Notes: generated from the sequence alone by a model not told the origin. 64,000 nucleotides of DNA from Deltaproteobacteria bacterium HGW-Deltaproteobacteria-19 (GCA_002841865.1 PHBD01000001.1:1-64000); one strand, 5' to 3'; shown: positions 13,606-48,425, counted from the stretch's first letter. A program made the numbers and translations.

Positions 13606-13629
13606 CAACTCCGCGTCAGGCGATATAGT
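13602..13629 (+). promoter_or_regulatory. Sigma-70 promoter of small RNA copy B
   Basis: TTGACA (13602-13607) overlaps the stop codon of the CoA-transferase gene, and TATAGT (13624-13629) follows after 16 bases. The stretch GCGATATAGTGACC is identical at the copy C promoter, 17 kb away. Confidence 0.75.
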
Positions 13630-13635
13630 GACCCC

Positions 13636-28432: not shown

Positions 28433-30298
28433 ATGGGCAGCCTGATTTGCGACGAAAGAGACCAGAAATTCGTGATGTATGAAATGCTCAAGATAGAGAA
28501 CCTGTTCAAGACGGAGCACTTCGGCGACTATTCCCGCGACATGTGCGACATGGTCCTGGACGGGGCGAGGAAGATGGCGGAGGAGGTCGTCTTCCCGGTC
28601 CTGGTCGAGGGCGACCGGGAAGGGTGCCGCGTCGAGAACGGCAACGTCCTCGTTCCGAAGTGCTTCCACCGCAATTTCCGCATCTTCCGGGAGGGCGGCT
28701 GGACGACCGTCAGCGTGTCCCCCGAGGCCGGCGGCCAGGGATTCCCCCTCATCATCGGCATGATGACCGAGGAGTGGTTCATGCACAACTTCAGCCTCGT
28801 CGGCTACGCCTTCCTGACCGCCGGGGCCGCCCACCTGATCGAGGCGTACGGCACGGAGGCCCAGAAGCGCAAATACATGCAGAAGATGTACGAGTGCGTG
28901 TGGGGCGGCAACATGTGCCTGACGGAACCCGGCGCCGGGACCGACCTCAGCAACATCCGGACGAAGGCCATCCGGCAGCCCGACGGCACGTTCCTCCTGG
29001 AGGGGACGAAGCAGTTCATCACCGGCGGGGACCAGGACCTGACGGAAAACGTCATCAGCCCCGTGCTGGCGCGGATCGAGGGCGATCCCCCGGGGACGGA
29101 GGGCATCTCCATCTTCCTGGTGCCCAAGTACATCGTCAACGATGACGGCTCCCTGGGGAGGCGCAACGACTACACCATCCCCGGTATCGAGCACAAGATC
29201 GGGCTGAACGGGAGCGCCACCTGCCAGATGAGCTTCGGCGAGAACGGGGCCTGCTACGCCGAGCTCCTGGGGGAGGAGCGGCAGGGGATCCGGATCATGT
29301 TCCAGATGATGAACGAGGCCCGGATCTTCGTGGCCGTCGAGTCCCTGGGCAGCGCCTCCATCGCCTACCTGCACGCCCTCGCCTATGCGAAGGAGCGCCT
29401 CCAGGGGTCCGCCCTGGAGGAGATGAAAAACCCCCTGGCCCCGAGGGTGCCGATCATCCGCCATCCCGACGTCCGGCGGATGCTCCTGTGGATGAAGGCC
29501 CACGTGGAAGGCATGCGGGCGCTCTCCTATTACACGGCCTGGTGCGTCGACGTCATGGAGAGCACCGCCGACGCCGCCGTGAAAGACACCTGTCGCGGCA
29601 TCATCGAGGTGCTGACGCCCGTCTGCAAGGCCTACTGCTCGGACCTGGCCTTCCGGATCTGCGAGACGGCCATCCAGGTGTACGGCGGGTACGGCTGCTG
29701 CAACGAGTATCCCGTCGAGCAGTTCCTCCGCGACGTGAAGCCGACCTCCATCTACGAGGGCGCCAACGGCATCCAGGCCCTCGACCTGGTGGGGCGGAAG
29801 CTCGGCATGAAGAAGGGCCTCTACTTCATGAAGCTCCTGGGGGAGATGCAGAAGACGATCCAGGAGTGCGCTGCCGCAAAGGGGGTAGGGGACCTGGCCG
29901 CGGACGTGCAGGAGGCCGCCAACACCCTGGCCGAGGCGGGCATGTTCTTCGCGGGCAGCGCCTCCAGCGGGAAATTCATGATCCCCGTCTCGAACGCCTA
30001 CACGTTCCTCACCATGATGGGAAAGGCCGTCTTCGGATGGCTCCTGCTCTGGCAGGCCCGCGTGGCCCGGGAGGCCCTCGAGAAGATCTGCGCGCAGAAG
30101 GGAGTCGATGCGGACGACAAGGCCGCCCTGAAAGCGCTTTCTGCGGAAGACTCGGAAGCCGCCTTCTACACCGGGAAAATCGCCGCCTGCCGCTATTTCA
30201 TCAAGCACATCCTCCCGGAAGTCGCCGCCGGCATGAAGGCCATCAAGAGCGAGGACCTCTCCCCGATCGACATCCCGGACGAGGGGTTTGCGGTTTAG
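28433..30298 (+). CDS. Long acyl-CoA dehydrogenase with C-terminal extension (DmdC-like)
   Basis: 621 residues, far longer than the usual 380 and matching the DmdC/AcdA-like group with an acetyl-CoA-dehydrogenase-type C-terminal domain. NMCLTEPGAGTDLSNI, GTKQFITGGDQDL, KIGLNGSATCQM, YGGYGCCNEYPVEQFLRD and SIYEGANGIQALDL, which supplies the catalytic glutamate, are present. About 150 helical residues follow. It oxidises a 2,3-saturated acyl-CoA; methylthiopropionyl-CoA is the known DmdC substrate but need not be this one. Last gene of the TetR operon, followed by a strong hairpin. Confidence 0.88.
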   Translation: MGSLICDERDQKFVMYEMLKIENLFKTEHFGDYSRDMCDMVLDGARKMAEEVVFPVLVEGDREGCRVENGNVLVPKCFHRNFRIFREGGWTTVSVSPEAGGQGFPLIIGMMTEEWFMHNFSLVGYAFLTAGAAHLIEAYGTEAQKRKYMQKMYECVWGGNMCLTEPGAGTDLSNIRTKAIRQPDGTFLLEGTKQFITGGDQDLTENVISPVLARIEGDPPGTEGISIFLVPKYIVNDDGSLGRRNDYTIPGIEHKIGLNGSATCQMSFGENGACYAELLGEERQGIRIMFQMMNEARIFVAVESLGSASIAYLHALAYAKERLQGSALEEMKNPLAPRVPIIRHPDVRRMLLWMKAHVEGMRALSYYTAWCVDVMESTADAAVKDTCRGIIEVLTPVCKAYCSDLAFRICETAIQVYGGYGCCNEYPVEQFLRDVKPTSIYEGANGIQALDLVGRKLGMKKGLYFMKLLGEMQKTIQECAAAKGVGDLAADVQEAANTLAEAGMFFAGSASSGKFMIPVSNAYTFLTMMGKAVFGWLLLWQARVAREALEKICAQKGVDADDKAALKALSAEDSEAAFYTGKIAACRYFIKHILPEVAAGMKAIKSEDLSPIDIPDEGFAV

Positions 30299-30330
30299 TT
30301 CAAGAAGCCAAGATCGGAAACCTGTCCGAA

Positions 30331-30370
30331 GGGCTGGGTCGACAAGGCATATCCGATGTCGGCCCAGCCC
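30331..30370 (+). terminator. Hairpin after the DmdC-like gene
   Basis: GGGCTGGGTCGACA and TGTCGGCCCAGCCC pair over 14 bp (one wobble) around a 12-base loop. No T run follows, so it may slow rather than end transcription. Confidence 0.5.
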
Positions 30371-30496
30371 CGGATATTCCAATTCCTGTTTCCACGCACT
30401 GAATCCAGCATTACTTCCTGTCAAATTCACAAAACAAATCCTTATTCGATTATGGTTATAAATAGCATGATATTATCAGGTTGCCGCTCAAAACGC

Positions 30497-30524
30497 TTGA
30501 CTTCTCCGTTTCAAGCGATATAGT
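30497..30524 (+). promoter_or_regulatory. Sigma-70 promoter of small RNA copy C
   Basis: TTGACT (30497-30502), 16 bases, TATAGT (30519-30524). The promoter sequence, including the following GACC, is almost identical to that of copy B. Confidence 0.75.
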
Positions 30525-30529
30525 GACCT

Positions 30530-30672
30530 CCAAATTTCCAAAAACACGGGAGCAGAAAGACCATAAGATAAACGTTCCAGATACATAAACCGTTTCAAAA
30601 GAACCGGTACTGAAAGATGAGCAGATAAATAGAAACCCCACTTCTTGGATGAGAGGTGGGGTTTTTATTTGT
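30530..30672 (+). ncRNA. Small RNA family, copy C, upstream of the RT operon
   Basis: An RNA unit of about 140 nt with promoter and terminator, homologous to copy B throughout: AACACGGGAGCA, the AAACCGTTTC/GAACCGGT hairpin, then CGGT, seven bases, GATGA, eleven bases and GAAACCCC into the terminator. It is more AT-rich than copies A and B, like the island it borders. It ends 30-60 bases before the primase gene. It could be an independent RNA, an integration site for the island, or a partner RNA of the reverse transcriptase. Its presence at two unrelated loci argues against the last. Confidence 0.7.
30634..30669 (+). terminator. Intrinsic terminator of small RNA copy C
   Basis: AACCCCAC (30634-30641) pairs with GTGGGGTT (30656-30663), with CTTCTT/GAGAG extending the stem, followed by a T run. 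Confidence 0.85.
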
Positions 30673-30724
30673 GATGTGACACGGGGAATACTGAGTCTTA
30701 ATGAATATTGTATTGGAAGATCCT

Positions 30725-31810
30725 ATGAAGGACAGATATATACTTTTTGAAATTAAGCAAATACCAATACTTCTTGTCGCGGAAAAATTGGGGATTCAGA
30801 TCCGCGGCAGGAAAGCAATGTGTTTCCGAGGACATGATAAGCTGACGCCCAGTTTGTCTTTCATGCCGAGCAAGAATATTTGGAAGTGCTTTGGATGTGG
30901 TCAGGGAGGGGACGTTATAAACCTCGTAATGCAAGCATTGGATTGTGACTTTAAAGTAGCATTAGAATGGTTTAAACAGAACTATCTTCTGTACACAACG
31001 GATTATAAAGACAATTATAATAAGAAGAATTCCAGAAATAACTATGAAGGGAAATCGTTAGTAACGCGAATAGTTGCGCCGGAAGAATCTGATAAAGAGA
31101 AGGCTTTTTATTCTGACCCAGAAATCTATGACTGGGTGATCAATGAGTGCTCTTCCGTGAAAAATGCCTTGGGACTTAAGTATCTCAGTGACCATGGCAT
31201 TTCTTCAGATAACGCTACGCATTTCGGCGTCCGAGAAATGAGAAGTCCCTCTAACCTGCTTAGTAAGATGAAACAGCAATGGGGACTAGAGAGAGTATAT
31301 CGTAGTGGCTTGGCTTGGGGTGAAAATGGTTTCCCTGAACGTCTGATATGGACATCATACTCGGTTCTTTTTCCTTTTATTCATGATGGTAAAGTAGTCT
31401 ATATTCAGGGACGTTTATTTGAGGGGAATTCTAAGTACCTGAATCCAAGGGGAATAAGCAAACCGATATTTAATCTCCAGCGCCTTAATTCTCTGAAAGT
31501 TGGTTCAACAATTCATATATGCGAAGGTATAACTGACGCAATTGCGATAGAGTCGCTTGGATTAGCATCTGTGGCAGTTCTTGGGGCCAGCTCTTTTCGT
31601 GAAGAATGGCTTGATCTTTTCATGCGATACGACATCGTAATTTTGCCAGATGGAGATAGTGGAGGTGAAATATTCTTTGAGACAATTTCTAAAATGTTTA
31701 AGAAACGTTGCAAAGCTGTTTATAGAGTTAGTTTACCACTGGGGAAAGACGTGTCGGACTTGATTGCAGAGATGAAGCGGAGGAGAACTCGTGGGACATT
31801 TAATAGATGA
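30725..31810 (+). CDS. DnaG-like CHC2 zinc finger/TOPRIM primase of the RT operon
   Basis: 361 residues. A CHC2-type zinc ribbon (Cys33, His37, then KCFGCG with Cys55 and Cys58, followed by GGDVINLVM) resembles the DNA-binding module of bacterial and phage primases. The first pair is spaced Cys-x3-His rather than the usual x2. A TOPRIM core has the glutamate in CEGITDAIAIESLG (Glu267) and DGD (Asp309/Asp311). It lacks the DnaG C-terminal helicase-binding domain. The ATG at 30725 follows GGAAG; an ATG at 30701 is the alternative. Its 3' end overlaps the reverse transcriptase gene by 20 bases, so the two are translationally coupled. It probably makes or recognises primers for the RT (inference). 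Confidence 0.82.
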   Translation: MKDRYILFEIKQIPILLVAEKLGIQIRGRKAMCFRGHDKLTPSLSFMPSKNIWKCFGCGQGGDVINLVMQALDCDFKVALEWFKQNYLLYTTDYKDNYNKKNSRNNYEGKSLVTRIVAPEESDKEKAFYSDPEIYDWVINECSSVKNALGLKYLSDHGISSDNATHFGVREMRSPSNLLSKMKQQWGLERVYRSGLAWGENGFPERLIWTSYSVLFPFIHDGKVVYIQGRLFEGNSKYLNPRGISKPIFNLQRLNSLKVGSTIHICEGITDAIAIESLGLASVAVLGASSFREEWLDLFMRYDIVILPDGDSGGEIFFETISKMFKKRCKAVYRVSLPLGKDVSDLIAEMKRRRTRGTFNR

Positions 31811-34800
31811 TGTGTCAGATCAATTAAACCTTCGTTGGGCTTGGGAGAAAGTTAGACGAGAGGCTGTGCCTGGAGACATTTGGTATGATGAGCTTGAATT
31901 TGCTAAATTTGAATTACAGTTGGAAGAAAACCTTAACAGTATCGCTACGGAAATTCTTAAAGGTCGATATAAAATTACTCCGATCAGGCCGATGCCTTTT
32001 CCAAAAAAGAATAAGGAAGATGGAACCCCACAAATACGTCAAGTATTCCAGATAGCAATTCGCGACCAAGTGGCGTGGACAGCAGTCGTAAATATTATTG
32101 GGCCCCATGTTGATAGAATAATGCCCATATGGAGTTACGGAAACAGACTTTATAGGACAATCTGGATAGAAAAAGATAAAAGTGGAAAGAAGCACAGGAA
32201 GTTCGGTCATTATAGACATGCATCTGGCAAACTATATCTTCCATTTAGGCAAAGTTGGCCTCTCTTTCGAAGACACGTCTACTTGGCCACCAGAGCTATG
32301 ACGAAAGTTGATAAATTGCCCGAGATAGATGAACAAACATTGGATGAGTCGGAAATCCAGGAACGTCTAACAATAGAGCACAAATGTCCTTTTGTATCAA
32401 AGGAATATTGGCAAAATAGAAAGCAGAAATTCGGCAACGAGGAATTATATTGGTGTAGTATTGACTTGGAGAAGTTTTACCCAAAAATGAATTTTGAGAT
32501 TGTGTTAAATAACATCGTAAACAATATCCCAACTGATTGGCAAGACGATGCCTTCCGACTACTTAAATCAATGATGACGTTCCCCTTGAATAATGAGGAT
32601 TGGTCAGAAGCTGATCTGAAGAAAATGGACATACAACCTAACCAAAGAACCTATATAAACATACCGACAGGACTATATGTAGCTGGTTTTCTAGCAAATG
32701 CTGGAATGATACACGTAGATCAACAAGCGGCAAAGAAGCTTGCTAATCATAATATTGCACATTTTAGATTTGTTGACGATCACATAATTATTGGCTACAG
32801 ATTTGATGACATTATTAATTGGCTGAACTGCTATAAAACTATCTTAGAACAAAGCAAGATAGGTACTAATATTAATTTGGAAAAAGTTGAGCCAAAGGAA
32901 TTAGCTCAATATCTAAGCACATGTGAAAATAAATTAGAATGTGAAGAGTTAATATCTAGTACAAAAATGGAGGCGGAGAAGAAATGTCGCTTGGATCCTC
33001 AGTTTCCGTCGCCACTTATGACAAAAACATTGGCTTTAGTGTCCGGGATAGCCCGGACAGATTTCAACCTGCTTGAGCAGGGAGAACTGGAGGCATTGAC
33101 GGATCAACTAGAGCATTTATTGCTAGTTGATCTGCCCGAAGACGAAATTCCCACAAGAACACGCTTATCGTTTGCAGCTATGCGATTAACTCGAATCGCA
33201 GAATGTCGACTTTCAAGAGACTCTGCTCGAGTTCAATCAAGTTGTAAACAAAAATTACTAAAGGACAAACTTAGTCGAGATGATCTTGATAAGTTCGGAC
33301 GATCGCAAGTTAATTTAGAATTGAAAAAACTGAAGAAGGATATAAATTTACAAAAAAAAGAGCGAGACCGTGAAGTTAACAGGGTATTTCAGTTATTGCG
33401 GAAAGTACTTAGGGAGCGACCAGATCGAATTCGGCTATGGACACGAGCGCTTCTTATGTGCCGCCTAACTGGCGTTAGAGGTCTCGCTGATCTACTGAGG
33501 GATATCAAGCGAGAGCGCAAAACAAACCCGTTAGCTGCAGAGTATCTACAGGCAAATATTCTCGGCTTACTGGGGACACAGGTCATCATCGCATCTCGAA
33601 TATTTCGGGGCAAAGATATAGCTGAATGGCGAAGACAAGCCGCAAGAGAATTCATGGAGGATATTTGTAAAACACACATTGAACAACCATCTAATAATAA
33701 CACACGCTGGTATTTACGAATGGCGTGGCAGCATTATAGTTTCGGTATTTACTGCGCGAAACTGGTACTGAAACAGGAATCTAATGAAAAGAATTCGGGA
33801 CAGATATCTTTCCCTGAGAGAATTGTGAATATGGGCAAGAGGAGCATTCAGGACGAAAATATTCTGGGATATAATCCTGTTCATTGGGCTTGGTGGGCAG
33901 GCAGGATGACCTTGCGCGATCTTAAGTCACGGGCGGATGGATTGGTAAAGGCGCTTGGAAGATCCCTTAAGCCATCACATGAATCTGCTGCTTTCTGGCG
34001 CTTCTTCCCACATGACGTTCCAACACTTATTCTCGAATACATGGTCTTGAATGAGACAACCGCACGGAGGCCAGGCATGCAATCTGGCTGGTGGTATGAC
34101 GCATTACGTGATAGAGCAGACTCAATATCCTATCTGGAAAGTATTAAAAGTAAAAGAGAGATTGCAAGAGTTCATGGTTGCTTAACTAAAGAGAAGAAGG
34201 ACACAGTATCACTCTATGAATGGTGTGAGTACATAAAGACATTGCATGGAGAAGACACAGCCGATCCAAGAACCAGTGAATGGACTGCGATCGAGATTAC
34301 CAGGCAAGCTGCTGAAATTCTGAGCAAAGCACCAATATTCAGTAAATACATAAATACAGCTAGATCGAGCGGGGGTATTCAGACATGGATACACCCAGCA
34401 AACTTCAGGATTCCAAGATCATGGCTTTGGGACGATAGACATGAAAAAGAATTAACTTGGGAGAAATGGGAAGAGTGTGTGAGAGGAAAAAATAATGATC
34501 CCAGTATTATCTATGTTAGTAAATCAGAACGCATTAGCGACATCCGATATACACCCCTTTTGAATAGTCAAGATCTTCTCTTTTCGTCTCTCAACCCAAC
34601 TCGTGGTCTTGGTCTCTTACTCTATGGTTTACTAAAGAAAAGCTTTGAATTGCCGTCGATATGGAATGGTCCGGGCCATTCTGACGTACTTATCATGCTC
34701 CCTAGGCTCTTGTTATCAGAGATGACATGTTCATCATGGACGCTTGGGGTCCTACAAAGTTGCCTGTTATCGAGATCGACGGAAAACATGATTCTTAGTA

Positions 34801-35021
34801 CTCGTCAACAGAAGGGTCCTATCGATGATGACAGACTTCTTGATCCATACCCATTAATAACTGCAAGAGAAGTGGCCGTGGTCTTAAGTGTTTGCCAAGA
34901 AGTATTAAAAAATTGCCAATTATCAACACTTCGGCATAGGGCCAGACAGTTAACGCCTATCAATGTCCGTCAATTAACAGATCCAAATTGGAGCGAAGTA
35001 TTTAAAGGGAGGTTGGAGTAA
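31791..35021 (+). CDS. Reverse transcriptase of the UG/DRT kind, 1076 residues
   Basis: The N-terminal 400 residues hold an RT palm. Motif A is YWCSIDLEKFYPKM with Asp225, the motif B-like stretch is INIPTGLYVAGFLANAGM, and motif C is RFVDDHIII with Asp329-Asp330, so both catalytic centres are present. PMPFPKKNKEDGTPQIRQV is the fingers region. There is no maturase X or HNH domain as in group II introns. About 650 mostly helical, Arg/Lys-rich residues follow, as in class 1 UG reverse transcriptases. It starts with GTG behind GGAGGAGAACTC inside the primase 3' end, and the nitrilase ATG directly follows its stop. AT-rich composition marks it as acquired. Anti-phage DNA synthesis is inferred from the DRT family. 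Confidence 0.85.
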   Translation: MGHLIDDVSDQLNLRWAWEKVRREAVPGDIWYDELEFAKFELQLEENLNSIATEILKGRYKITPIRPMPFPKKNKEDGTPQIRQVFQIAIRDQVAWTAVVNIIGPHVDRIMPIWSYGNRLYRTIWIEKDKSGKKHRKFGHYRHASGKLYLPFRQSWPLFRRHVYLATRAMTKVDKLPEIDEQTLDESEIQERLTIEHKCPFVSKEYWQNRKQKFGNEELYWCSIDLEKFYPKMNFEIVLNNIVNNIPTDWQDDAFRLLKSMMTFPLNNEDWSEADLKKMDIQPNQRTYINIPTGLYVAGFLANAGMIHVDQQAAKKLANHNIAHFRFVDDHIIIGYRFDDIINWLNCYKTILEQSKIGTNINLEKVEPKELAQYLSTCENKLECEELISSTKMEAEKKCRLDPQFPSPLMTKTLALVSGIARTDFNLLEQGELEALTDQLEHLLLVDLPEDEIPTRTRLSFAAMRLTRIAECRLSRDSARVQSSCKQKLLKDKLSRDDLDKFGRSQVNLELKKLKKDINLQKKERDREVNRVFQLLRKVLRERPDRIRLWTRALLMCRLTGVRGLADLLRDIKRERKTNPLAAEYLQANILGLLGTQVIIASRIFRGKDIAEWRRQAAREFMEDICKTHIEQPSNNNTRWYLRMAWQHYSFGIYCAKLVLKQESNEKNSGQISFPERIVNMGKRSIQDENILGYNPVHWAWWAGRMTLRDLKSRADGLVKALGRSLKPSHESAAFWRFFPHDVPTLILEYMVLNETTARRPGMQSGWWYDALRDRADSISYLESIKSKREIARVHGCLTKEKKDTVSLYEWCEYIKTLHGEDTADPRTSEWTAIEITRQAAEILSKAPIFSKYINTARSSGGIQTWIHPANFRIPRSWLWDDRHEKELTWEKWEECVRGKNNDPSIIYVSKSERISDIRYTPLLNSQDLLFSSLNPTRGLGLLLYGLLKKSFELPSIWNGPGHSDVLIMLPRLLLSEMTCSSWTLGVLQSCLLSRSTENMILSTRQQKGPIDDDRLLDPYPLITAREVAVVLSVCQEVLKNCQLSTLRHRARQLTPINVRQLTDPNWSEVFKGRLE

Positions 35022-35954
35022 ATGAACCAAGAATTTGAAGATGCACTTTTAGTCGGAATAGCACAAACAACATTAGATGCCAATAGCGCTTGGAACATTG
35101 ATTCTGCGGTTCCGAAAATGACAACAGAACAGGACGAGTATGTTTGGTTAGAAATTTGCAAAGCAATGCGAAATTTTCAAGATGATGGATTAGTGCCCAG
35201 AATCATTGTCTTTCCGGAATTGTCACTGCCACATACACGACTGGATGATTTTGAGCGCTTGGTGTGTGCATTGAATGTGATAGCATTAGTTGGCATCGAT
35301 TACACTCTAGACAGTGCCACAAGAACCGCGAAGAATCAGGGAATTATCTTCGTGCCAAAAGGATTTTTTAGAGATTATTCTTCTCGCTCTTGCAGTCGTA
35401 TTTTATTTGGAAAGACTTACCCTTCGCCAAAGGAGAAAAGCAATCTACAAAATATGAAACCTTCTTGGACATTTGTTGGAGATCAAAATGTATATGTCAT
35501 GGATTGCGCACAATATGGACGACTTGGGATGAGTATTTGCTATGATTTTATGGACCTAGAACGCGCGTTGATGTACAGGGGACAAATCGAGCACTTGTTC
35601 GTCCTTGCGTATAATAAAGATCTTCGTATGTTCAAATCCCTTGCAGATTCCCTTTCTCGTACAATATTCTGTAATGTTATTGTATGCAACACAGGCTATT
35701 ACGGAGGTTCGGTTGCTGTCTCTCCTTACTTCGAATCTCACCGACGCACCCTGTATTCCCACGATGGGAGTCAATTGTTTACAACACAGGTAGTAGCCCT
35801 TCCCGTCCTAAAGATAGTTCAGGCACGCAAAGGTATTAAATCATATCAAATGGGGAAAAAGCCTGTTCAGGAATTTAAAGACCCCCCCCCTGGTATATGT
35901 GCAGAAGAATGCCTTAATCTAAAACATATGGACGCATCAAATCATTTAACATAA
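35022..35954 (+). CDS. Nitrilase/carbon-nitrogen hydrolase of the RT operon
   Basis: 310 residues of nitrilase fold. The Glu-Lys-Cys triad is readable: FPELSLP (Glu66), a lysine in FGKTYPSPKE (Lys131) and GMSICYDFMDLE (Cys173). The protein could thus hydrolyse a nitrile, amide or carbamoyl bond. Its ATG follows the RT stop with no gap, with GGGAGG upstream in the RT end. In DRT1 systems a nitrilase domain is fused to the RT C-terminus; here the same pair is split into two proteins. Its target in defence is unknown for the whole class. Confidence 0.85.
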   Translation: MNQEFEDALLVGIAQTTLDANSAWNIDSAVPKMTTEQDEYVWLEICKAMRNFQDDGLVPRIIVFPELSLPHTRLDDFERLVCALNVIALVGIDYTLDSATRTAKNQGIIFVPKGFFRDYSSRSCSRILFGKTYPSPKEKSNLQNMKPSWTFVGDQNVYVMDCAQYGRLGMSICYDFMDLERALMYRGQIEHLFVLAYNKDLRMFKSLADSLSRTIFCNVIVCNTGYYGGSVAVSPYFESHRRTLYSHDGSQLFTTQVVALPVLKIVQARKGIKSYQMGKKPVQEFKDPPPGICAEECLNLKHMDASNHLT

Positions 35955-36024
35955 TGATTCTGATTTATTTTGAAACAAATAAATAATTTAGTATAACAGA
36001 CTTCTCAGAAAACGGAGGATCTAA

Positions 36025-36549
36025 ATGACCATCAAGCAAACATCGCTAATTGTATTCGGACCGTATGAAATTCCCCATGAAAAACTCGCTAAAGGTACGT
36101 CCAAACAGATAACGAAAGAGAATTCAAAATCATTCTGGGATCAACAAGAAGTTGAACAAGTTGCAATGAAGCAAGGATGCTATATTTTTGGGTTAAAGGT
36201 TGGGAAGGGTTTTACTCCTTGGTATGTGGGCAAAGCATCAAAGAAATTTAAGCAAGAAGCATTGCATCAAACGAAACTTACTCATTATAACGAAGTAATT
36301 TTTAAGGGCAGAAAAGGTAAGCCTGTTATGTTTTTCGTAGCGAAGCCATCGAACCTGAAAAAAATTCCATCAAAGCAGATTAATGACTTGGAAAAATTTC
36401 TTATTCAATCTGCTTATTACAAGAATCCTGAACTAAAGAACAAACAGAATGCAAATCAGCCTGATTGGGGTATTGTTGGCGTTATTCGTGGTGGGAAAGG
36501 CAAAGCCACAATGAATGCATATCAGTTTAAACGTATGCTTAACCTCTAA
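36025..36549 (+). CDS. GIY-YIG-like nuclease-fold protein
   Basis: 174 residues. GCYIFGLKVGKGFTPWYVGKA (51-71) has the two-strand GxY...YVG signature of GIY-YIG nucleases, and a later helix with Glu123 followed by NPELKNKQN matches the distal glutamate and asparagine positions. The usual arginine of the first helix appears as lysine (ASKKFKQEAL), so activity is uncertain. A GGAGGATCTAA ribosome site precedes the ATG. It lies 70 bases after the nitrilase on the same strand and shares the AT-rich composition, so it may be a fourth component or a separate island gene. Confidence 0.6.
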   Translation: MTIKQTSLIVFGPYEIPHEKLAKGTSKQITKENSKSFWDQQEVEQVAMKQGCYIFGLKVGKGFTPWYVGKASKKFKQEALHQTKLTHYNEVIFKGRKGKPVMFFVAKPSNLKKIPSKQINDLEKFLIQSAYYKNPELKNKQNANQPDWGIVGVIRGGKGKATMNAYQFKRMLNL

Positions 36550-36636
36550 TATAAAAGGCGCGAAATGAGCGGTACACTGAGATCATAAACGGATCTTTTC
36601 GACACGTGCGAACTGATCCACAACCATCGCAAGACT

Positions 36637-36819
36637 TTGAAAATGCTGATGTCCACCGAGGGCGACGGAGCTTTTGCGGTGGTGGATGTGGATACGCTCT
36701 GGCGCCACAAGGAGACGAAGGAGGACTTTCACTGGAAGGGAAGGGCATGCAAGGGATACACGAAGATCGGCGATGAGTGGAAGCTGATCTATCACATGGG
36801 TCTTCTCGACTACGATTGA
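36637..36819 (+). pseudogene. SnoaL-like (NTF2-fold) gene fragment, copy 1
   Basis: About 60 codons read as the C-terminal half of a SnoaL-like/DUF4440 protein: STEGDGAFAVVDVDTLWRH, then KETKEDFHWKGRACKGYTK and DEWKLIYHMGLLDY. The N-terminal half is missing, with stops and frame changes upstream. A second, more damaged copy lies at 38.8 kb. Confidence 0.55.
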
Positions 36820-36926
36820 TAACTGGTGGGAAGAGAAAAAAGGATTTAAAGAGACTGCTTCTACAACTGCTGGACGATTAATTTGGCCAAGCTGCCATTT
36901 GACGATCAAATTCAAGGAGGCCACCA

Positions 36927-37349
36927 ATGACAATGTCCAATGAAACGATTGAAAAATTGATTGATAAAGCGGGAGTCTCGATCATCAGTTCAGTCGATGA
37001 ATCGGGCTTTCCGAATACCAAGGCCATGTTGTCGCCAAGAAAAAGGGTAGGACTTAAAGAATTTTATTTCACAACCAATACATCGTCGATGCGCGTGAAG
37101 CAGTATCGAGCAAATGATAAGGCTTGCATTTATTTTTATGACAGACGGTTTTTCCGTGGTGTCATGCTGATCGGCAAGATGAAGGTTCTAACGGATCAGA
37201 AAACAAAGAAGATGATTTGGCGAGACGGTGATGATTTGTATTATCCTCTTGGTGTTACGGATCCTGATTATTGCGTTTTGAAATTTACAGCAGAAAAAAT
37301 GAGAATTTATCAAAATTTCAAATCGGAAACGATTGCACTTTCCAAGTAG
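36927..37349 (+). CDS. Pyridoxamine 5'-phosphate oxidase family protein (FMN-binding split barrel)
   Basis: 140 residues. GVSIISSVDESGFPNTKAM, then FYFTTNTSSMRVKQY and ACIYFYDRRFFRGVMLIGK follow the strand order of small general-stress-type PNPOx-like proteins that bind FMN or F420. The C-terminus includes PDYCVLKFTAEKMRIYQN. It would reduce or sequester a flavin-dependent substrate; true PdxH activity is unlikely at this length. An AAGGAGGCCACCA site precedes it. It sits between two SnoaL-like gene fragments. Confidence 0.75.
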   Translation: MTMSNETIEKLIDKAGVSIISSVDESGFPNTKAMLSPRKRVGLKEFYFTTNTSSMRVKQYRANDKACIYFYDRRFFRGVMLIGKMKVLTDQKTKKMIWRDGDDLYYPLGVTDPDYCVLKFTAEKMRIYQNFKSETIALSK

Positions 37350-37391
37350 AGAATGGTGGACAACGGAGGCCAAAGAGCGGGCCGGCGTCTT

Positions 37392-38531
37392 TTAGCCGAG
37401 CGTTCTAATATTCAGATTATAAGAGCCGTCATCTTCTTGCTTCATAACCGACATCTCTACCAATTTACTTAGATCCCTCCTGGCCGTTCTTTCGCTCACA
37501 TTCCGATATAGTGCGTTATATGGGGAAACTGAGAAAAGATCTTTTAAGGATACGCTTTTGAAGGTATCCAACATGATCGATAACAGGTCATGCTGTCTCT
37601 GGGTGATGCTTTTACTGGTCCTGAGAGAAGAATAGTAATCCCTCATTACGAGAAATTGAATCAAGAATGTTACGTTACGCTTGATTTCAGCAAGCGATTC
37701 AATAACGCCATTCATCATGAAGGTAAGAAAGTCCGATATGTCTTGATCGGAGTTTTTTCTTGCCAGGGAAAAAGCTAAATAATAATTATCGATGTTTCTG
37801 TAGTAGTAATTTGAAAGCATGGTTGGGACGTATTTAATGCCGGATTTTCTGATTATAATCGCCTCAACAATCCGAATGGTCCTTCCATTTCCATTGCCAA
37901 AAGGATGAATCAATCCTAAATGATAGTGGGCCAACGCGGCTCTCACAAGCGTATCCAACTGCATGATTTGATCCGAGTTGATCCATATGATGAATTCCTT
38001 CATTAAGTTTTGTATATCGGGCAAACACTTTGGCGGCGTGTAAATTCCACCATGTTCATTGTCGCCGACTTTCACTACGTGGTTTCTGTAATTGCCTGGG
38101 ACGTTATCCGGATAATCGAGCCCATCCGTTATGATTTTATGAAGATCTCTGATGATATCTTCGGATATTTGAGCGGCATCGCCTGATGCATCATGTTCCT
38201 TCACATAGGAATACGCATTCTTCAGATTTATTATTTCCTTTTCAGCTTGCCCCGTCTTTCCCTCATTCGCTGTATCTTTTATAATTTTTCCAACTTCCTC
38301 TTCTTTTAATGGATTGCCTTCGATGGCAGCCGTGCTGAATATCGATCTGCGGATCAACTCCTCTTCCAGATAGGTCGACCATTCAGGAAGAATCGGCAGA
38401 TCGGCGATTGCTTCATATGACATTCTTCCCTCCAGTATCAGGGGGTTAATTTTTTGAGCGTCATATTTCGAGCTGAATGCGAAATTGCCGGATTTGAAGG
38501 TCATGACTTTCCTGACAGTGTTTTCGTCCAT
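37392..38531 (-). CDS. Fic-family protein (AMPylation domain)
   Basis: 379 residues. The Fic core HPFGNGNGRTIR is complete. Upstream, STAAIEGNPL matches the S/TxxxE(G/N) inhibitory helix, placing it in the self-inhibited class with an N-terminal lock. The C-terminal 80 residues look like a winged helix (ERTARRDLSKLVEMSVM), as in many Fic proteins that also bind DNA. It probably transfers AMP to a protein target or regulates its own gene. Repeated TGTCACAA boxes lie in front of its start. A role in the defence island is possible. Confidence 0.88.
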   Translation of the reverse strand: MDENTVRKVMTFKSGNFAFSSKYDAQKINPLILEGRMSYEAIADLPILPEWSTYLEEELIRRSIFSTAAIEGNPLKEEEVGKIIKDTANEGKTGQAEKEIINLKNAYSYVKEHDASGDAAQISEDIIRDLHKIITDGLDYPDNVPGNYRNHVVKVGDNEHGGIYTPPKCLPDIQNLMKEFIIWINSDQIMQLDTLVRAALAHYHLGLIHPFGNGNGRTIRIVEAIIIRKSGIKYVPTMLSNYYYRNIDNYYLAFSLARKNSDQDISDFLTFMMNGVIESLAEIKRNVTFLIQFLVMRDYYSSLRTSKSITQRQHDLLSIMLDTFKSVSLKDLFSVSPYNALYRNVSERTARRDLSKLVEMSVMKQEDDGSYNLNIRTLG

Positions 38532-38758: not shown

Positions 38759-38822
38759 GATTCGTCATGATTTACACCCTCATCGATCGTCTCTTGTTCA
38801 TGATCCTGCCGCTCACACGACG

Positions 38823-38939
38823 TTGAAAATCGTGATTTCCACTGAGGGCGACCGGGGTTTCGCGGTGGAGGATGTGGACACACTCCGGCGCCGCAAGGAG
38901 ACAAAAGGGGACTTTCACTGGAAGGGAAGGGTCTGCGCA
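38823..38939 (+). pseudogene. SnoaL-like gene fragment, copy 2
   Basis: About 38 codons (STEGDRGFAVEDVDTLRRR, KETKGDFHWKGRVC) parallel the fragment at 36.6 kb base for base over most of the length and then diverge before the C-terminal end. With copy 1 it flanks the PNPOx and Fic genes. Confidence 0.5.
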
Positions 38940-42238: not shown

Positions 42239-42252
42239 AGATCCTCCTTGTT

Positions 42253-43161
42253 TCATTCGTCTTTCCCAGAAAGAAGGGAAGGAACAGGCCCAACGTTCGA
42301 TTTCAGAAAAGTCGTCAGATTGATTTTCTTGTTCGAGAGATTCAGTTTTCTCCGAATGTTTTCACGATGTCGATTGATCGTTGCCGTGGAGACGCCGCGC
42401 AAGCTGGCGATTTCCTTGGTACGCATTCCGTTCCGGATCATGTTGCAGATATCGACTTCCGCAGGGGTCAGCACACTGAAATGTTTCAAGGACTGGTTGA
42501 TGAAGGGGGCTGCCATTTCTTCCAGGCTGGTCCTTAGTAACTCCAAGTATTTTATTTTGCTGCGCGATACTGCAGGTGCCAAGGCATGGAGGATCGGCAT
42601 GATCACCCTGTCGATGTTCAATTGAATATTTTCATAAATATGCTTTTTTTCATTTTCGATGTTCGAAAGAACAAGTCGCAAGGCTGTATTTGCTTCCTGC
42701 AGCGCCTTTCTTTCAAGAAGGAGCTGCCGATTGTTTTCTTGAAGTTCCTGCTCCGCCAGAATTCGGACCGCAATCTCACCGATCTTTTGGGCAACGCCCT
42801 CCAATAAAATCCTTTCCTCCTTGAGAAACGGCCCCTCGTCCTCCAGGGGCCGTTCCTGCATATAGATGATGGTTACATCACCTGAAATTTCATCATTCAC
42901 ACGAATTGCAGCCGACTGTCTCCATTGCGTCCATGCAAACTCCTTGCTTTCAAATGTTTTCCCTTTGAACGTAATCCTCGCACAGGCAACTTCCGCATAG
43001 CGCCAGGACGAGGGCAGAAAATCGACGAGACACTTCAGAAATTCCTCCATGGAGCCATGGCAGCTTTCGGCCAGGCGCGCCATGCCATAAAGACAATTCA
43101 GTTCCTTGATGCGCTCCTGCAGGGCAATTTCAATGTTTTCATTCTGTTTCATGATGGTCAT
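42253..43161 (-). CDS. GAF/LuxR-type transcriptional regulator
   Basis: 302 residues. An N-terminal GAF-like sensor (about 1-140), a long coiled coil (about 135-190) and a C-terminal LuxR HTH (VLTPAEVDICNMIRNGMR, TKEIASLRGVSTATINRHRENIRRKL) are visible. Such proteins often sit below PAS/GAF sensors and respond to cytoplasmic ligands. A 9-bp inverted repeat about 135 bases upstream of its start may be its operator. Confidence 0.8.
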   Translation of the reverse strand: MTIMKQNENIEIALQERIKELNCLYGMARLAESCHGSMEEFLKCLVDFLPSSWRYAEVACARITFKGKTFESKEFAWTQWRQSAAIRVNDEISGDVTIIYMQERPLEDEGPFLKEERILLEGVAQKIGEIAVRILAEQELQENNRQLLLERKALQEANTALRLVLSNIENEKKHIYENIQLNIDRVIMPILHALAPAVSRSKIKYLELLRTSLEEMAAPFINQSLKHFSVLTPAEVDICNMIRNGMRTKEIASLRGVSTATINRHRENIRRKLNLSNKKINLTTFLKSNVGPVPSLLSGKDE

Positions 43162-43568
43162 CCGCTTTGGAAGGAGCTCGCCTGCTTCTGCTTATTGCCT
43201 ATCTGATGTAGGCAATGCAAGTGCATTTTATGAGCATTTACACCACCGCTGTTGTCCGATAATGAACTGTCGAATAAAACTGTGGAAATCATTCGCCTCC
43301 ATCGTCCTTCGGGCGGTTTTCTTGATTTGATGGAGGCCGCCCTGTGCATGAATGATCCAAAGGACGAATCGGGGCGATATTATCCCACAGTCCTGTAAAC
43401 GTATCTGCATGAGGGGATCAACGGGAGGCACGTTTCATCGGCTTCACCGAAGATCCCCTCGATGCGCTCGAATGGGTATCGGAGGAATGGTTCGCAAGAT
43501 CATCGATCCGGCATACCGTTTCAACGATGCCTCGAAGTACGGGTGTGCAGCCGGGAGTGTTATTGCCA
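43162..43568. promoter_or_regulatory. Divergent intergenic region with 9-bp inverted repeat
   Basis: About 400 bases between the divergent LuxR-type and FemAB-like genes. GCCTCCATC at 43295-43303 and GATGGAGGC at 43329-43337 form a perfect inverted repeat with a 25-base loop, either an operator or an RNA hairpin. No gene is seen. Confidence 0.35.
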
Positions 43569-44648
43569 ATGAGAATCGACGTGCAGCCAAAGAAAATGGA
43601 TTCACTGCTTCCCACGGACATTCTCTTCCAGACCACGTACTGGGGACAGGTTAAGTCCAATCTCGGCTGGGAGCCGCTCGCCTTCGATTTCCTCTCGGAG
43701 GAAGGGCAATACGGCGATGTTCTCGTCCTGAAGAGACCCCTGGGCCAGGGGGTTGCCGCCGCCTATATCCCTCAAGGCCCCGAAACGGGTCCTGATTCCG
43801 ACAAGTATGGAATATTTCTCGAAGCATTGTCACAGTCACTGATCCGTCACATGGATTCGGATGTCGCATTCATTCGGTACGATCTTCCCTGGGAGTCTCC
43901 GTATGCCGCCGACATGATGCAGGGAGAATCCTGGCCGGGATGCATTTCGCCGCAATTGCAGGAATTGCGAATGAATATCGGCACCAAAACCTGGAACCTC
44001 CGGAAGGCGGCGATTGATTTCACGGTTGCCGATGCTCTGATTGTCGACATTGCGCGTACGGAAGAGGACATCCTGTCAACCATGAAACCCAAATGCCGGT
44101 ACAATATCCGGCTTTCACAAAGAAAAGGAGTCCATGTATCGATAGCCTCTCCCAATCAGTTGCCATCGTTCTACGACCTCTATCTGCAGACAGCCAGGCG
44201 TAACGGCTTCCTGGAGTGCAGTGATCGCTGTTTTGCCGAGCTTTTCTCCACGCGCACGACTCATCCCGAATCTCCCGAGATTCTGTTTCTCCTCGCCGCT
44301 GACGGGAGCGATATCGTCGCCGGCGCAATCATTGCCGTCTCCGGTCAACGGGCGATCTTTCTCTTTGGGGCATCCTCCAATGAAAAGCGCAACCTGATGG
44401 GATCGTATGCCGTGCACTGGGAAGCCATCAAGCTGGCGCGTGAAAAGGGGTGCCTGACGTATGACATGGGATCCGTTTCACCGCTTCCTGATCCCCACCA
44501 CCCCTTTTATGGCATGCACCGATTCAAAACAGGTTTCGGGGGTACGATCGTCCATCGAAGTGGTTCATGGGATTACCTGCTTGACAGTCAGAATTATGAA
44601 AATATTCGCAACTTCGAATTGCTGAGCAGTGCGTTGATTCCTTCTTGA
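43569..44648 (+). CDS. FemAB-like peptidoglycan/aminoacyl N-acyltransferase
   Basis: 359 residues forming two GNAT-like domains. PTDILFQTTYWGQVKSNLGW, DIARTEEDILSTMKPKCRYNIRLSQRKGV and the second-domain SYAVHWEAIKLAREKGCLTYDMG with HRFKTGFGG are the classical FemABX/lipid II Gly-transferase landmarks. Proteobacterial members lack a defined role and may modify peptidoglycan or exopolysaccharide precursors. The start is the ATG at 43569 behind GGGAGTG; an earlier in-frame ATG has no site. A terminator lies about 60 bases downstream. Confidence 0.82.
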   Translation: MRIDVQPKKMDSLLPTDILFQTTYWGQVKSNLGWEPLAFDFLSEEGQYGDVLVLKRPLGQGVAAAYIPQGPETGPDSDKYGIFLEALSQSLIRHMDSDVAFIRYDLPWESPYAADMMQGESWPGCISPQLQELRMNIGTKTWNLRKAAIDFTVADALIVDIARTEEDILSTMKPKCRYNIRLSQRKGVHVSIASPNQLPSFYDLYLQTARRNGFLECSDRCFAELFSTRTTHPESPEILFLLAADGSDIVAGAIIAVSGQRAIFLFGASSNEKRNLMGSYAVHWEAIKLAREKGCLTYDMGSVSPLPDPHHPFYGMHRFKTGFGGTIVHRSGSWDYLLDSQNYENIRNFELLSSALIPS

Positions 44649-44703
44649 TTTCCGATCATGGATTGAATCACTCATCAAGAAAAAGGGAAACCTGTCGTTC
44701 AAG

Positions 44704-44735
44704 GCCCGGCTGGACCCATCCTACCGGGTCTTTTT
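44704..44735 (+). terminator. Intrinsic terminator after FemAB-like gene
   Basis: CCCGG and CCGGG form the stem around a 16-base loop, followed by TCTTTTT. Confidence 0.7.
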
Positions 44736-44859
44736 GAAATGAAAGGAAATTAAAAAAGTGAAGGGACTTGCATCATATATATACAATTGCGTTCATGATC
44801 ATGCTTATCAAGAACAATCTGGAAAGAACCATAGAACGAGAAATAAATGCGGGGAGATT

Positions 44860-45093
44860 ATGAACAGTGACTACCAATGGGTTTGTCTTATAGAGGCTGC
44901 GGATCGGATTTCTCAATTCGATCACAGCAAGCCCCAGAAGTTACACGAGGTACTTGAAGAAATGAACAAAAACCTGGCCGGACTGCTGGAGGTATTTCCA
45001 AAGGATGTTGATCCTTTAGTGAATATGGAAGGATATGCCGTCCGTCAGTTTATAAAAACCATATTAAATGTGCTGGATTCACATAAAAAATAG
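44860..45093 (+). CDS. Small hypothetical protein
   Basis: 77 residues, acidic and helical (WVCLIEAADRISQF, PQKLHEVLEEMNKNLAGLLEVF). The ATG is preceded by GGGGAG. No family is recognised. It lies 55 bases upstream of the Rnk gene on the same strand, so they may be co-transcribed. Confidence 0.6.
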   Translation: MNSDYQWVCLIEAADRISQFDHSKPQKLHEVLEEMNKNLAGLLEVFPKDVDPLVNMEGYAVRQFIKTILNVLDSHKK

Positions 45094-45148
45094 ATAAAAT
45101 CGCACATCCCTGGGTATTTCACATACTAAATTCTTGGAGACTGACATC

Positions 45149-45526
45149 ATGAAGATGCCTAAAAAGATTTATATTACTGAGAAAGATATAGACCGCCTCA
45201 ATAGCATCTTAATGAATATAAAAGACTCACCTGTCGTGAGGAAGCTTCAGGACGAGCTGGACCGCGCAACAATCTTGAATCCCGAAGAGATACCTCCGGA
45301 TGTTGTAACCATGAACTCGCGGGTTCAATTTAAGACGCTGGAAACAGGTGACACATCCGAAATCACGATTGTCTACCCGTCCAATGCGGACAGCAGCAAG
45401 GCAAGAGTCTCCATCCTCGCGCCTGTGGGGGCGGCATTGATTGGCCTGAGAGTGGGAGATGAAATCGAATGGGCTCTCCCCACGGGACTGGTTCGAACTT
45501 TTAGAATATTATCCGTGGGAGATTGA
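45149..45526 (+). CDS. rnk: Rnk/GreA-like transcription factor
   Basis: 125 residues. A short N-terminal helix pair (YITEKDIDRLNSIL) is followed by the GreA/GreB C-terminal FKBP-like domain: VVTMNSRVQFKTLETGDTSE, VSILAPVGAALIGLRVGDEIEW. This is the Rnk layout, a protein that binds RNA polymerase near the secondary channel and is known as regulator of nucleoside diphosphate kinase. The ATG follows TTGGAG; a TTG five codons earlier is less likely. Confidence 0.85.
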   Translation: MKMPKKIYITEKDIDRLNSILMNIKDSPVVRKLQDELDRATILNPEEIPPDVVTMNSRVQFKTLETGDTSEITIVYPSNADSSKARVSILAPVGAALIGLRVGDEIEWALPTGLVRTFRILSVGD

Positions 45527-45540
45527 AAGGGCTAGTGCGT

Positions 45541-45993
45541 CTATCTTCTTGCCTTTCCGGAAACAGCTTCTATGGAAATTTTGAAAATTCTTGTTTTATC
45601 TTTTTGCCTCTCGATATATTTCAATCCATCAGCGATATAGTTGATTGAATATTTTCGTATAATGCCTTCAAGAGCCGATTGTTTTTCTTCTCCGAATGAC
45701 TCGGATGCCAGTCCTTGAACAATACAACTCTCATATCTGGTGGCGAATTTCTCGGGAAGAATCTCGGCCCTTCCCACTACACAAAAGGAAACTCTTGGGT
45801 TTGCAATGATATTGTTGATTATTCTACCTTCAAGGGCACAGTGGAAGTAGATGCACCGGTCCTTCAAACAGTAATGAATCGGCACACCATATGGCACATT
45901 ATCGACAGACGTTGTACTCAGGAAGCCATATTCGCCTTTTTCCAGAATTTCTAAAGCTTCCGTATCTGTTATCGCCCTGTCTTTTCTGCGCAT
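45541..45993 (-). CDS. Pyridoxamine 5'-phosphate oxidase family protein (NimA-like)
   Basis: 150 residues. MRRKDRAITDTEALEILEKG, YGFLSTTSVDNVPYGVPIHY, IYFHCALEGRIINNIIANPRVSFCVVG are the landmarks of the NimA-like flavin split-barrel group, whose members bind FMN or haem and can reduce nitroimidazoles. Conserved histidines are present. It starts behind AAGGGGACGAA and stands alone, convergent with rnk. Confidence 0.85.
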   Translation of the reverse strand: MRRKDRAITDTEALEILEKGEYGFLSTTSVDNVPYGVPIHYCLKDRCIYFHCALEGRIINNIIANPRVSFCVVGRAEILPEKFATRYESCIVQGLASESFGEEKQSALEGIIRKYSINYIADGLKYIERQKDKTRIFKISIEAVSGKARR

Positions 45994-46206
45994 TTCGTCC
46001 CCTTAGATCAGCACAAGAACAAGGAAATCCCCAATGATGATCAAGCCGTAATTGCATACACGAGCAATGGGCAAATATCAATTGCCATGTGAAACGTTCA
46101 ATTTCTTGAAGATTTTGGATTCAATATGACAGGAAGGAACAAATAACAGATCGTCCCGACAGCGCTGCCGGTTCGCGTTTGTATGTTTTTCAGCCACCAT
46201 GTTCTA

Positions 46207-47226
46207 TTATCGTTCTTCCCCGGCAAGCTGAGCAATTGCAGAACAGATCCGCTTCACGTTTGGCAGAGCTTGGTCTTCACGTTCGCGGGCATAAGGGATG
46301 GTTGTCTGCGTACACACTCGGGCATACTTGAATGAGACGCCTGCCTCCAGTGCTACAGCTCCCAGTTCGCCCGACAGGCCGAATCCCTCGTAATCTTCAT
46401 CCACGACCAAGAGACGTCCTGTGTGGGCGACCATTTCACAAAAGGTCGTCCTGTCAAGAGGAGAGATCGTTCGCAAGTCCAGTACCGCTGCTGATATTCC
46501 TTCCCGCTCTGCAGCCTCAGCTGCCTGGAGAGCACGGTGTACACCGACACCAGCGCTCACGATGGTCACATCGCTTCCAGTTCGTCGGACCATGGCTTTG
46601 CCGATGGGGAGTGGCTCCCATCTCCTGGGCACGGCTCCCTTCGCTCCATTTGCAGGCACATCATACTGTACGGTGCGTCGCCCCCCTGAACCCAAAAATT
46701 CCAGCCAGGTCTCTGAGAGCAACTTGTGTTCCAGAAAGATGACAGGACCATCATGCTGTAAAGCGGCCAGCAACAGTCCCCCCGCGTCAGCAGGAGTGGA
46801 GGGAACAACTATGGATAACCCAGGGATGTGAGCCAGCCATCCCCATAGAGACTGCTCATGCTGTCCCCCATCTCCATAACCGCCGCCACAGGGAACACGG
46901 ACCATCACAGGCGCAGTCCATTTGCCGCCTGAAAATGCTTCCACTTTGGCCGCATGGTTGAGCAGGGCATCCATGCATACACCCAGAAAATCAACCATAT
47001 ACATTTCAACTACCGGGCGCAATCCAGCCATCGCGGCGGCTACGCCTGCCCCCAGGAAGGCGCTTTCGCTGATAGGAGTCCCTCGCACGCGCCTGGGTCC
47101 GAATCGTACAAGGAGGTTTCGTCTCAGCAAGGGGACATCCTCACCAAAAAGGATGATGCGCGGGTCATCCGCCATGGCCTGTGCAAGCGCGTCATCAATG
47201 GCCTGTGTGAAAAACATCGTGCTCAT
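46207..47226 (-). CDS. 2-oxoacid dehydrogenase E1 beta subunit
   Basis: 339 residues. FTQAIDDALAQAMADDPRIILFGEDV, ISESAFLGAGVAAAMAGLRPVVEMYMVDF and the C-terminal transketolase half (SVGAGVHRALQAAE, DLRTISPLD) match E1 beta subunits of acetoin, pyruvate or branched-chain oxoacid dehydrogenases. With the alpha subunit it forms a thiamine-diphosphate tetramer that decarboxylates the oxoacid. The ATG overlaps the alpha stop as ATGA. No E2 (lipoyl) or E3 gene is in the neighbourhood. Confidence 0.9.
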   Translation of the reverse strand: MSTMFFTQAIDDALAQAMADDPRIILFGEDVPLLRRNLLVRFGPRRVRGTPISESAFLGAGVAAAMAGLRPVVEMYMVDFLGVCMDALLNHAAKVEAFSGGKWTAPVMVRVPCGGGYGDGGQHEQSLWGWLAHIPGLSIVVPSTPADAGGLLLAALQHDGPVIFLEHKLLSETWLEFLGSGGRRTVQYDVPANGAKGAVPRRWEPLPIGKAMVRRTGSDVTIVSAGVGVHRALQAAEAAEREGISAAVLDLRTISPLDRTTFCEMVAHTGRLLVVDEDYEGFGLSGELGAVALEAGVSFKYARVCTQTTIPYAREREDQALPNVKRICSAIAQLAGEER

Positions 47227-48251: not shown

Positions 48252-48276
48252 CATCATCTCCTGTCTGATCTTAAAT

Positions 48277-48312
48277 AATAAACCCCGCACTCTTCCGAGG
48301 AACGGGGTTTGC
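48277..48312 (-). terminator. Intrinsic terminator of the secreted-protein gene
   Basis: On the minus strand AACCCCG and CGGGGTT form a stem followed by TATTATTT, downstream of the gene ending at 48426. Confidence 0.65.
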
Positions 48313-48425
48313 GTTTACATTCCATTTCGCCACCTGGCAGGGTCAAATGGGTATTCAATCAGTCAACGTCGTTCATACCGGTTCCCGAGCACCGTCATTT
48401 GCTAGTTTGACCCGGCAATAAATAA

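What the first reader, a model, noticed from the sequence alone, without database searches (positions are those of the whole stretch)
30725..36549. Four-gene RT cassette: primase, reverse transcriptase, separate nitrilase, GIY-YIG-like protein
Seen: CHC2/TOPRIM primase and RT genes overlap by 20 bases, the nitrilase ATG follows the RT stop with no gap, and a GIY-YIG-like gene follows after 70 bases. All are AT-rich inside a GC-rich chromosome. Known: DRT1 (UG class 1) defence RTs have a nitrilase domain fused to the RT. Here the nitrilase is unfused and a DnaG-like primase is the first gene, an arrangement I do not recall among described DRT types. Inference: a variant or new type of RT-based anti-phage system.
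Basis: partly seen in the sequence, partly recalled or inferred. Interest (0 to 1): 0.92.

Follow-up and report, generated by a model that had tools for sequence, protein, structure and literature searches.

The report
UG6 reverse-transcriptase phage-defence operon
This is a member of a catalogued but unstudied bacterial anti-phage gene set (a DNA-making reverse transcriptase, a primase-like protein and a separate nitrilase enzyme), sitting in a chromosomal slot where a sister species carries a different defence cassette; the arrangement is not new, but its mechanism is untested.

Summary
In detail: four co-directional, tightly packed, AT-rich genes encode a DnaG-like primase, a 1076-aa reverse transcriptase (RT), a nitrilase and a GIY-YIG-like protein. 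The "new type" reading is not. The RT is UG6 (PADLOC RT_UG6, 840 bits; next best 64), and PADLOC already has models for its partners (RTasDnaG-like 277 bits, RTasNitrilase 319 bits). I recovered 15 more UG6 RT loci (Burkholderiales, Sphingomonadaceae, Sideroxyarcus, Verrucomicrobia, Chlorobiaceae), found by the RT alone. All 13 uninterrupted ones have primase-RT-nitrilase in that order and strand, with gene distances correlated at r = 0.97-0.99 and all three active sites intact. The fourth gene is in none of them; its relatives sit beside other defence genes, so it is cargo. A same-genus genome has a KAP-NTPase + FRG (PDC-S15) cassette at the same site, so this is a defence slot. Best mechanism: an unfused version of DRT1. 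The RT makes template-free, protein-primed DNA that assembles and restrains the nitrilase, and phage replication releases it; the primase probably senses or primes single-stranded DNA. An invariant S/T cluster in a low-confidence loop (RT 407/411/413/418), placed like DRT1's priming S402, is a testable priming site. New member of a known kind.

The parts
30725..31810 (+). DnaG-like primase (CHC2 zinc ribbon + Toprim/DnaG catalytic core, no C-terminal helicase-binding domain); an upstream in-frame ATG lies at 30701
   Evidence: Pfam and PADLOC RTasDnaG-like 277 bits; matches Aquifex DnaG 2au3. C41/H45/C63/C66 and E275/D279/D317/D319 invariant in 10 members (numbering from 30701)
31791..35021 (+). 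UG6 reverse transcriptase, 1076 aa: RT domain (about residues 1-400) followed by alpha-helical repeats; motif FVDD
   Evidence: PADLOC RT_UG6 840 bits; D225, D329 and D330 invariant in 14 members; AlphaFold2 model pLDDT 67
33003..33044 (+). RT residues 405-418 (FPSPLMTKTLALVS): candidate protein-priming loop; S/T at 407, 411, 413 and 418 in all 14 members
   Evidence: pLDDT below 50 at 404-416; position analogous to DRT1 S402 (PMC13275509); function is inference
35022..35954 (+). Stand-alone nitrilase (presumed effector); E66, K131, E138 and C173 invariant; conserved C-terminal K-x-x-P-P-G tail
   Evidence: RTasNitrilase 319 bits; aligns with the nitrilase domain of solved DRT1 9yfd, C173 over C1116; alignment
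36025..36549 (+). GIY-YIG-like protein, 174 aa; accessory cargo, not part of the conserved core
   Evidence: absent from 15 other UG6 loci; homologues beside other defence genes
30665..37392 (.). Segment absent from the same-genus genome G395, which has KAP NTPase + FRG (PDC-S15) genes in its place: defence slot. The AT-rich cassette proper is about 30665-36570
30490..30664 (+). Backbone flank: sRNA-like element with promoter-like site and terminator hairpin, shared with the sister genome (88%); marks the left edge and is not part of the system

Best explanation
A three-gene UG6 (class-3-like, DRT1-related) abortive-infection system with a local GIY-YIG-like passenger. Shown here: family membership, conserved operon, intact active sites of RT, nitrilase and primase core, and placement in a variable defence slot. 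Inferred from DRT1: the RT attaches itself to a serine or threonine and builds untemplated single-stranded DNA on itself. This DNA organises RT and nitrilase into a restrained assembly. Phage replication (helicase, SSB, single-stranded DNA) disturbs it, and the freed nitrilase destroys an essential metabolite, stopping the infected cell. Most speculative: the DnaG-like subunit binds single-stranded DNA, either as the sensor that couples to phage replication forks or by laying primers on the RT product.
For: RT_UG6 840 bits, RTasDnaG-like 277, RTasNitrilase 319. Same three genes, order and strand in 13 of 13 uninterrupted loci found by the RT alone. Pairwise distances of the three proteins correlate at r = 0.974-0.991 over 13 loci, 0 of 2000 permutations as high. 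Catalytic residues invariant. The nitrilase aligns with DRT1 9yfd at the catalytic cysteine, and the joint profile of UG6 and a DRT1-like RT hits only 9yfd, 7e-46. Only 17 RT columns are S/T/Y in all 14 sequences, and four lie at 407-418 in a low-confidence loop, about 77-88 residues after the catalytic Asp pair, as for DRT1 S402. The insert leaves only 36-60 nt before gene 1, so there is little room for a cassette-borne guide RNA upstream. The sister genome carries another defence candidate at the site.
Against: No phage-defence test of a UG6 system is known to me or found in the held library. The DRT1 paper says S402 is not conserved in other class 3 RTs, so the UG6 priming site may lie elsewhere. 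UG6 and DRT1-like RTs share only about 21% identity in the RT domain. The assembly of an unfused nitrilase with the RT is not modelled. The structure model is medium quality (pLDDT 67), and 9yfd did not appear among the Foldseek matches, possibly because the library stops at April 2026. The role of the primase is unsupported beyond conservation.
Confidence: 0.55

Rival explanations
1. The DnaG-like protein is the RT's primer maker: it lays RNA primers on single-stranded DNA (phage intermediates or the RT's own product) and the RT extends them, giving double-stranded or hybrid DNA as the active product; the nitrilase is the effector.
For: All DnaG zinc-ribbon and Toprim core residues are invariant in 10 members. 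Primase and RT genes overlap in all 13 loci compared, and their distances correlate best (r = 0.991).
Against: DRT1, the closest solved relative, needs no primase and is protein-primed. The same conservation would fit a DNA-binding sensor.
Confidence: 0.2
2. The Toprim protein is itself an effector (an RNase or nuclease, as in the RT-Toprim retron Eco2), with the nitrilase modifying or regulating it.
For: Toprim nucleases act as effectors in RT systems (retron Eco2 is cited as an RT-Toprim fusion in PMC13275509). The acidic residues are intact.
Against: Whole-length similarity is to DnaG primases (TIGR01391 86.7 bits; phrog_47 DNA primase 126 bits), including the CHC2 zinc ribbon, rather than to OLD-type Toprim nucleases.
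Confidence: 0.12
3. The four genes form one system, and the GIY-YIG-like nuclease processes the RT's DNA product or the phage genome.
For: Gene 4 follows on the same strand after 70 nt with its own ribosome site. Other UG6 operons end in a nuclease: DEDDh exonuclease in L038/L039/L057/L058, SbcB (PADLOC RTasSbcB 767 bits) in L056, DUF2779 in L041.
Against: Gene 4 is absent from 15 other UG6 loci. Its two homologues found sit at unrelated defence loci: PDC-M65A/B, and GmrSD_N with restriction-modification genes. The GIY-YIG arginine is not visible, and the structure prediction failed (pLDDT 39).
Confidence: 0.15
4. Not a defence system: a mobile or housekeeping RT (group II intron, retron, DGR).
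For: The RT has weak similarity to group II intron RT/maturase (40.8 bits, cut-off 300).
Against: UG6 840 bits. No intron, retron or DGR parts were noted among the genes. It sits where the sister genome has another defence cassette.
Confidence: 0.03

Closest known systems
UG6 RT group (PADLOC RT_UG6 with RTasDnaG-like and RTasNitrilase; myRT UG6, PMC8934634)
   Same: RT family, DnaG-like first gene, separate nitrilase, order and overlaps
   Different: this copy carries a GIY-YIG-like fourth gene instead of no extra gene, an exonuclease/SbcB or a helicase
DRT1 (UG1, RT-nitrilase fusion; cryo-EM 9yfd, PMC13275509)
   Same: RT + alpha-helical domain + nitrilase with the same catalytic cysteine context; S/T-bearing flexible loop after the RT domain
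   Different: nitrilase is a separate protein; extra DnaG-like protein; RT domain about 21% identical to a DRT1-like RT; S402 itself not identifiable
UG5-nitrilase RTs (PADLOC RT_UG5-nitrilase)
   Same: nitrilase related (111 bits)
   Different: RT does not match UG5 at 1e-3; the nitrilase is fused there
PADLOC RT_UG29
   Same: a DnaG-like region matching gene 1 (74 bits) lies within a 2280-position RT model
   Different: there it is part of one model; here it is a separate gene, and this RT does not match UG29
DRT7 (UG10, RT with primase-polymerase domain)
   Same: a primase accompanies the RT
   Different: DnaG/Toprim primase here, not a primase-polymerase (AEP) domain, and not fused

Membership tests
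UG6 RT system | RT scores best with the UG6 model | tested here: met
   840 bits against 64 for the next model
UG6 RT system | DnaG-like gene directly upstream, nitrilase gene directly downstream | tested here: met
   RTasDnaG-like and RTasNitrilase; same order in 13 of 13 uninterrupted relatives
UG6 RT system | catalytic residues of RT, nitrilase and primase core intact | tested here: met
UG6 RT system | protection against phage | not testable with these tools
   needs a bench test; no published UG6 test found
DRT1 (UG1) | nitrilase fused to the RT | tested here: not met
   separate ORF 35022-35954 with its own ATG
DRT1 (UG1) | RT in the UG1/Drt1a family | tested here: not met
   Drt1a 60.6 bits against UG6 840
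DRT1 (UG1) | priming serine S402 | tested here: inconclusive
   the profile alignment to 9yfd stops before S402; an S/T cluster at 407-418 is at a similar distance from the DD pair
[quoted passage not shown]
   needs purified RT, dNTPs and mass spectrometry
Retron | retron RT family | tested here: not met
   best retron model 23 bits, cut-off 235
Group II intron | intron RT/maturase above cut-off | tested here: not met
   40.8 bits, cut-off 300
DRT7 (UG10) | AEP/PrimS primase-polymerase fused to the RT | tested here: not met
   primase is DnaG/Toprim type and a separate gene
GIY-YIG nuclease (gene 4) | GxY...YxG motifs plus catalytic Arg and Glu | tested here: inconclusive
   G51/Y53, Y67/G69 and E123 align; no Arg visible; no Pfam hit of its own

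The most novel reading that the evidence does not exclude
UG6 is a two-polymerase DNA-writing immune system in which the DnaG-like primase and the RT cooperate on the same product (for example primase-primed second-strand synthesis on RT-made single-stranded DNA) to control a free-standing nitrilase, with the product trimmed by locally recruited nucleases (DEDDh/SbcB, DUF2779, possibly GIY-YIG).
Probability: 0.17. Interest if true: 0.7.

Novelty: new member of a known kind. Interest (0 to 1): 0.36.

Why it matters
UG6 appears mechanistically unstudied, while its fused relative DRT1 was solved only in 2026 and the nitrilase substrate is still unknown. An unfused version lets RT, nitrilase and the extra primase be purified, mutated and mixed separately, which could show what activates the nitrilase and what it attacks. 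The invariant S/T loop gives a point-mutant test. The recurring nuclease at the end of other UG6 operons (DEDDh exonuclease, SbcB, DUF2779) hints that the DNA product is trimmed, as exonuclease I trims DRT1 adducts in vitro.

Tried and rejected
Single-protein scans of genome contigs and viral contigs and a two-sequence profile scan found no relatives because exact peptide patterns were too strict. A hand-made DNA pattern (DQxxxTA-16 residues-SYGNR) was first miscounted, then worked; it gave one chance hit in viral contigs (L013) and one in genomes (L015). tblastn of the RT against plasmids and phages: nothing. Rfam: nothing above threshold in 30200-37500. Foldseek of the RT model finds RTs and Abi/DRT polymerases only, with low TM-scores. 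The gene 4 model was too poor to search. Considered and rejected: group II intron, retron and DGR RTs; DRT7-type primase fusion; a cassette-borne upstream ncRNA (36-60 nt available, and the sRNA-like element at 30490-30664 is backbone, present in the sister genome without the cassette); gene 4 as a core component; the SoFic-like Fic gene (37392-38531) as part of the system (it is backbone, also in the sister genome). The main UG/Abi survey (NAR 2022, gkac467) is not held, so what it says about UG6 rests on PADLOC model names and memory.

Full report
What is there. The four ORFs are real and arranged as described. Gene 1 (30725-31810) has a CHC2 zinc ribbon and a Toprim domain. It resembles the zinc-ribbon and RNA-polymerase core of bacterial DnaG (Aquifex 2au3) and lacks the helicase-binding tail. 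The RT (31791-35021) overlaps it by 20 nt, the nitrilase (35022-35954) starts directly after the RT stop, and gene 4 (36025-36549) follows after 70 nt; each of the last three has a ribosome site. GC is 37-44% against 60-66% just upstream.

Identity. Against PADLOC the RT scores 840 bits with RT_UG6 and 64 with the next model. Gene 1 scores 277 bits with RTasDnaG-like and gene 3 scores 319 bits with RTasNitrilase. A 2021 RT survey also lists a UG6 RT with a nitrilase neighbour (PMC8934634). The combination is therefore a catalogued kind. I found no paper in the held library that tests UG6. The main UG/Abi survey is not held.

Relatives. The RT_UG6 model matches 1 of 395 genomes sampled across the host's phylum (its own), and 4 of 401 and 4 of 398 in the families of two other carriers, each including the carrier used as centre. 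A degenerate DNA pattern from two RT motifs found nine loci in 84,980 genomes plus one chance hit, and the family searches added six. All have DnaG-like, RT and nitrilase in that order on one strand with overlapping ORFs. One more locus is split across contigs and one ends at a contig edge. Searches used the RT only, so this co-occurrence is not built in. Over 13 loci (the window and 12 relatives; the near-identical Sphingomonas and Sphingobium copies are counted once) the pairwise distances of the three proteins correlate at 0.974-0.991, and no permutation of 2000 reached this.

Active sites. RT D225, D329 and D330 are invariant in 14 sequences. Nitrilase E66, K131, E138 and C173 are invariant, including against a fused DRT1-like protein, and C173 aligns with DRT1's catalytic C1116. 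The DnaG-like C41, H45, C63, C66, E275, D279, D317 and D319 are invariant in 10. Seventeen RT columns are S, T or Y in every sequence, and four of them (407, 411, 413, 418) sit together in FPSPLMTKTLALVS, a stretch that AlphaFold2 leaves at low confidence (residues 404-416). In DRT1 the priming S402 lies 77 residues after the catalytic DD, in a segment unresolved by cryo-EM. I propose this loop as the UG6 priming site; that is inference, since the DRT1 authors state that S402 itself is not conserved in other class 3 RTs.

Fourth gene and accessories. Gene 4 occurs in none of the other UG6 loci, as far as their contigs reach. Its homologues lie next to a PDC-M65A/B candidate system on a Polymorphobacter plasmid, and next to GmrSD_N and restriction-modification genes in another genome of the host's order. 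It is best read as independent defence-associated cargo. Other UG6 operons end differently: a DEDDh exonuclease (L038, L039, L057, L058), an SbcB-type exonuclease that matches PADLOC's RTasSbcB at 767 bits (L056), or a DUF2779 protein with DxE and NxxFE motifs (L041). The Sphingomonas and Sphingobium copies also have UvrD-like helicase and PD-(D/E)XK genes upstream and lie beside the same Tn3-family transposase. The Burkholderiales copies and Sideroxyarcus show no conserved fourth gene.

Genomic setting. In a same-genus genome the flanks are 93-95% identical up to window 30664 and again from 37393. Between them that genome has a 903-aa KAP-type NTPase (PADLOC PifA-like) and a 275-aa FRG protein (PDC-S15, 5.6e-47). 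The window's cassette is therefore one of at least two alternative defence cassettes at this site. The left edge falls directly after the terminator of an sRNA-like element shared by both genomes, so that element is not the RT's guide RNA.

Mechanism. The closest solved relative, DRT1 (PMC13275509), makes template-free DNA on itself. That DNA assembles nitrilase tetramers into dormant filaments, and a phage helicase (Dda) is required for activation. UG6 has the same parts with the nitrilase freed and a DnaG-like protein added. I therefore favour a split-DRT1 abortive-infection model (0.55), with the primase as single-stranded-DNA sensor or primer maker. The first part is inference by homology; the primase role is the weakest step.

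Verdict. Observation confirmed; interpretation partly supported; a new member of the known UG6 kind. Interest lies in its being mechanistically unexplored, not in its arrangement.

Noticed in passing
window 30490-30664 and 13600-13749: sRNA-like intergenic element (promoter-like site, terminator hairpin) in two copies in the window (72% alike) and one in the same-genus genome (88%); none in 39 other genomes of the order. The defence slot begins right after the first copy.
   Followed up: partly
L010 10460-14060 (G395:C8): In the sister genome the same slot holds a KAP-type NTPase (PifA-like) and an FRG protein (PDC-S15), another candidate defence pair.
   Followed up: partly
window 37392-38531: Fic-domain protein with 167 bits to PADLOC SoFic; it is backbone, present next to both alternative cassettes.
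   Followed up: no
window 36627-36750 and 38813-38936: 83% identical 124-nt direct repeat, apparently two truncated copies of one gene end; only the second copy is in the sister genome.
   Followed up: partly
L038 7495-19735 and L039 6951-19191: Near-identical six-gene UG6 operon (PD-(D/E)XK, UvrD-like helicase, DnaG-like, RT, nitrilase, DEDDh exonuclease) beside the same Tn3-family transposase in Sphingomonas and Sphingobium: recent transfer.
   Followed up: partly
L056 6431-13066: UG6 trio followed by an SbcB-type exonuclease (PADLOC RTasSbcB 767 bits) and a phage-type integrase.
   Followed up: partly
L045 1800-6573: Gene 4 homologue as last gene of a four-gene cluster with PDC-M65A/B on a Polymorphobacter plasmid; the 223-aa third gene is unnamed.
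   Followed up: no
L011 6446-10261: Fused DRT1-like RT-nitrilase (1271 aa) directly beside genes that look like BREX components (PglZ- and BrxL-like, by eye) in another genome of the host's order.
   Followed up: no
window about 42250-48420: A second, about 6-kb segment (regulator, FemAB-like, E1 dehydrogenase pair) missing from the same-genus genome; looks metabolic.
   Followed up: no
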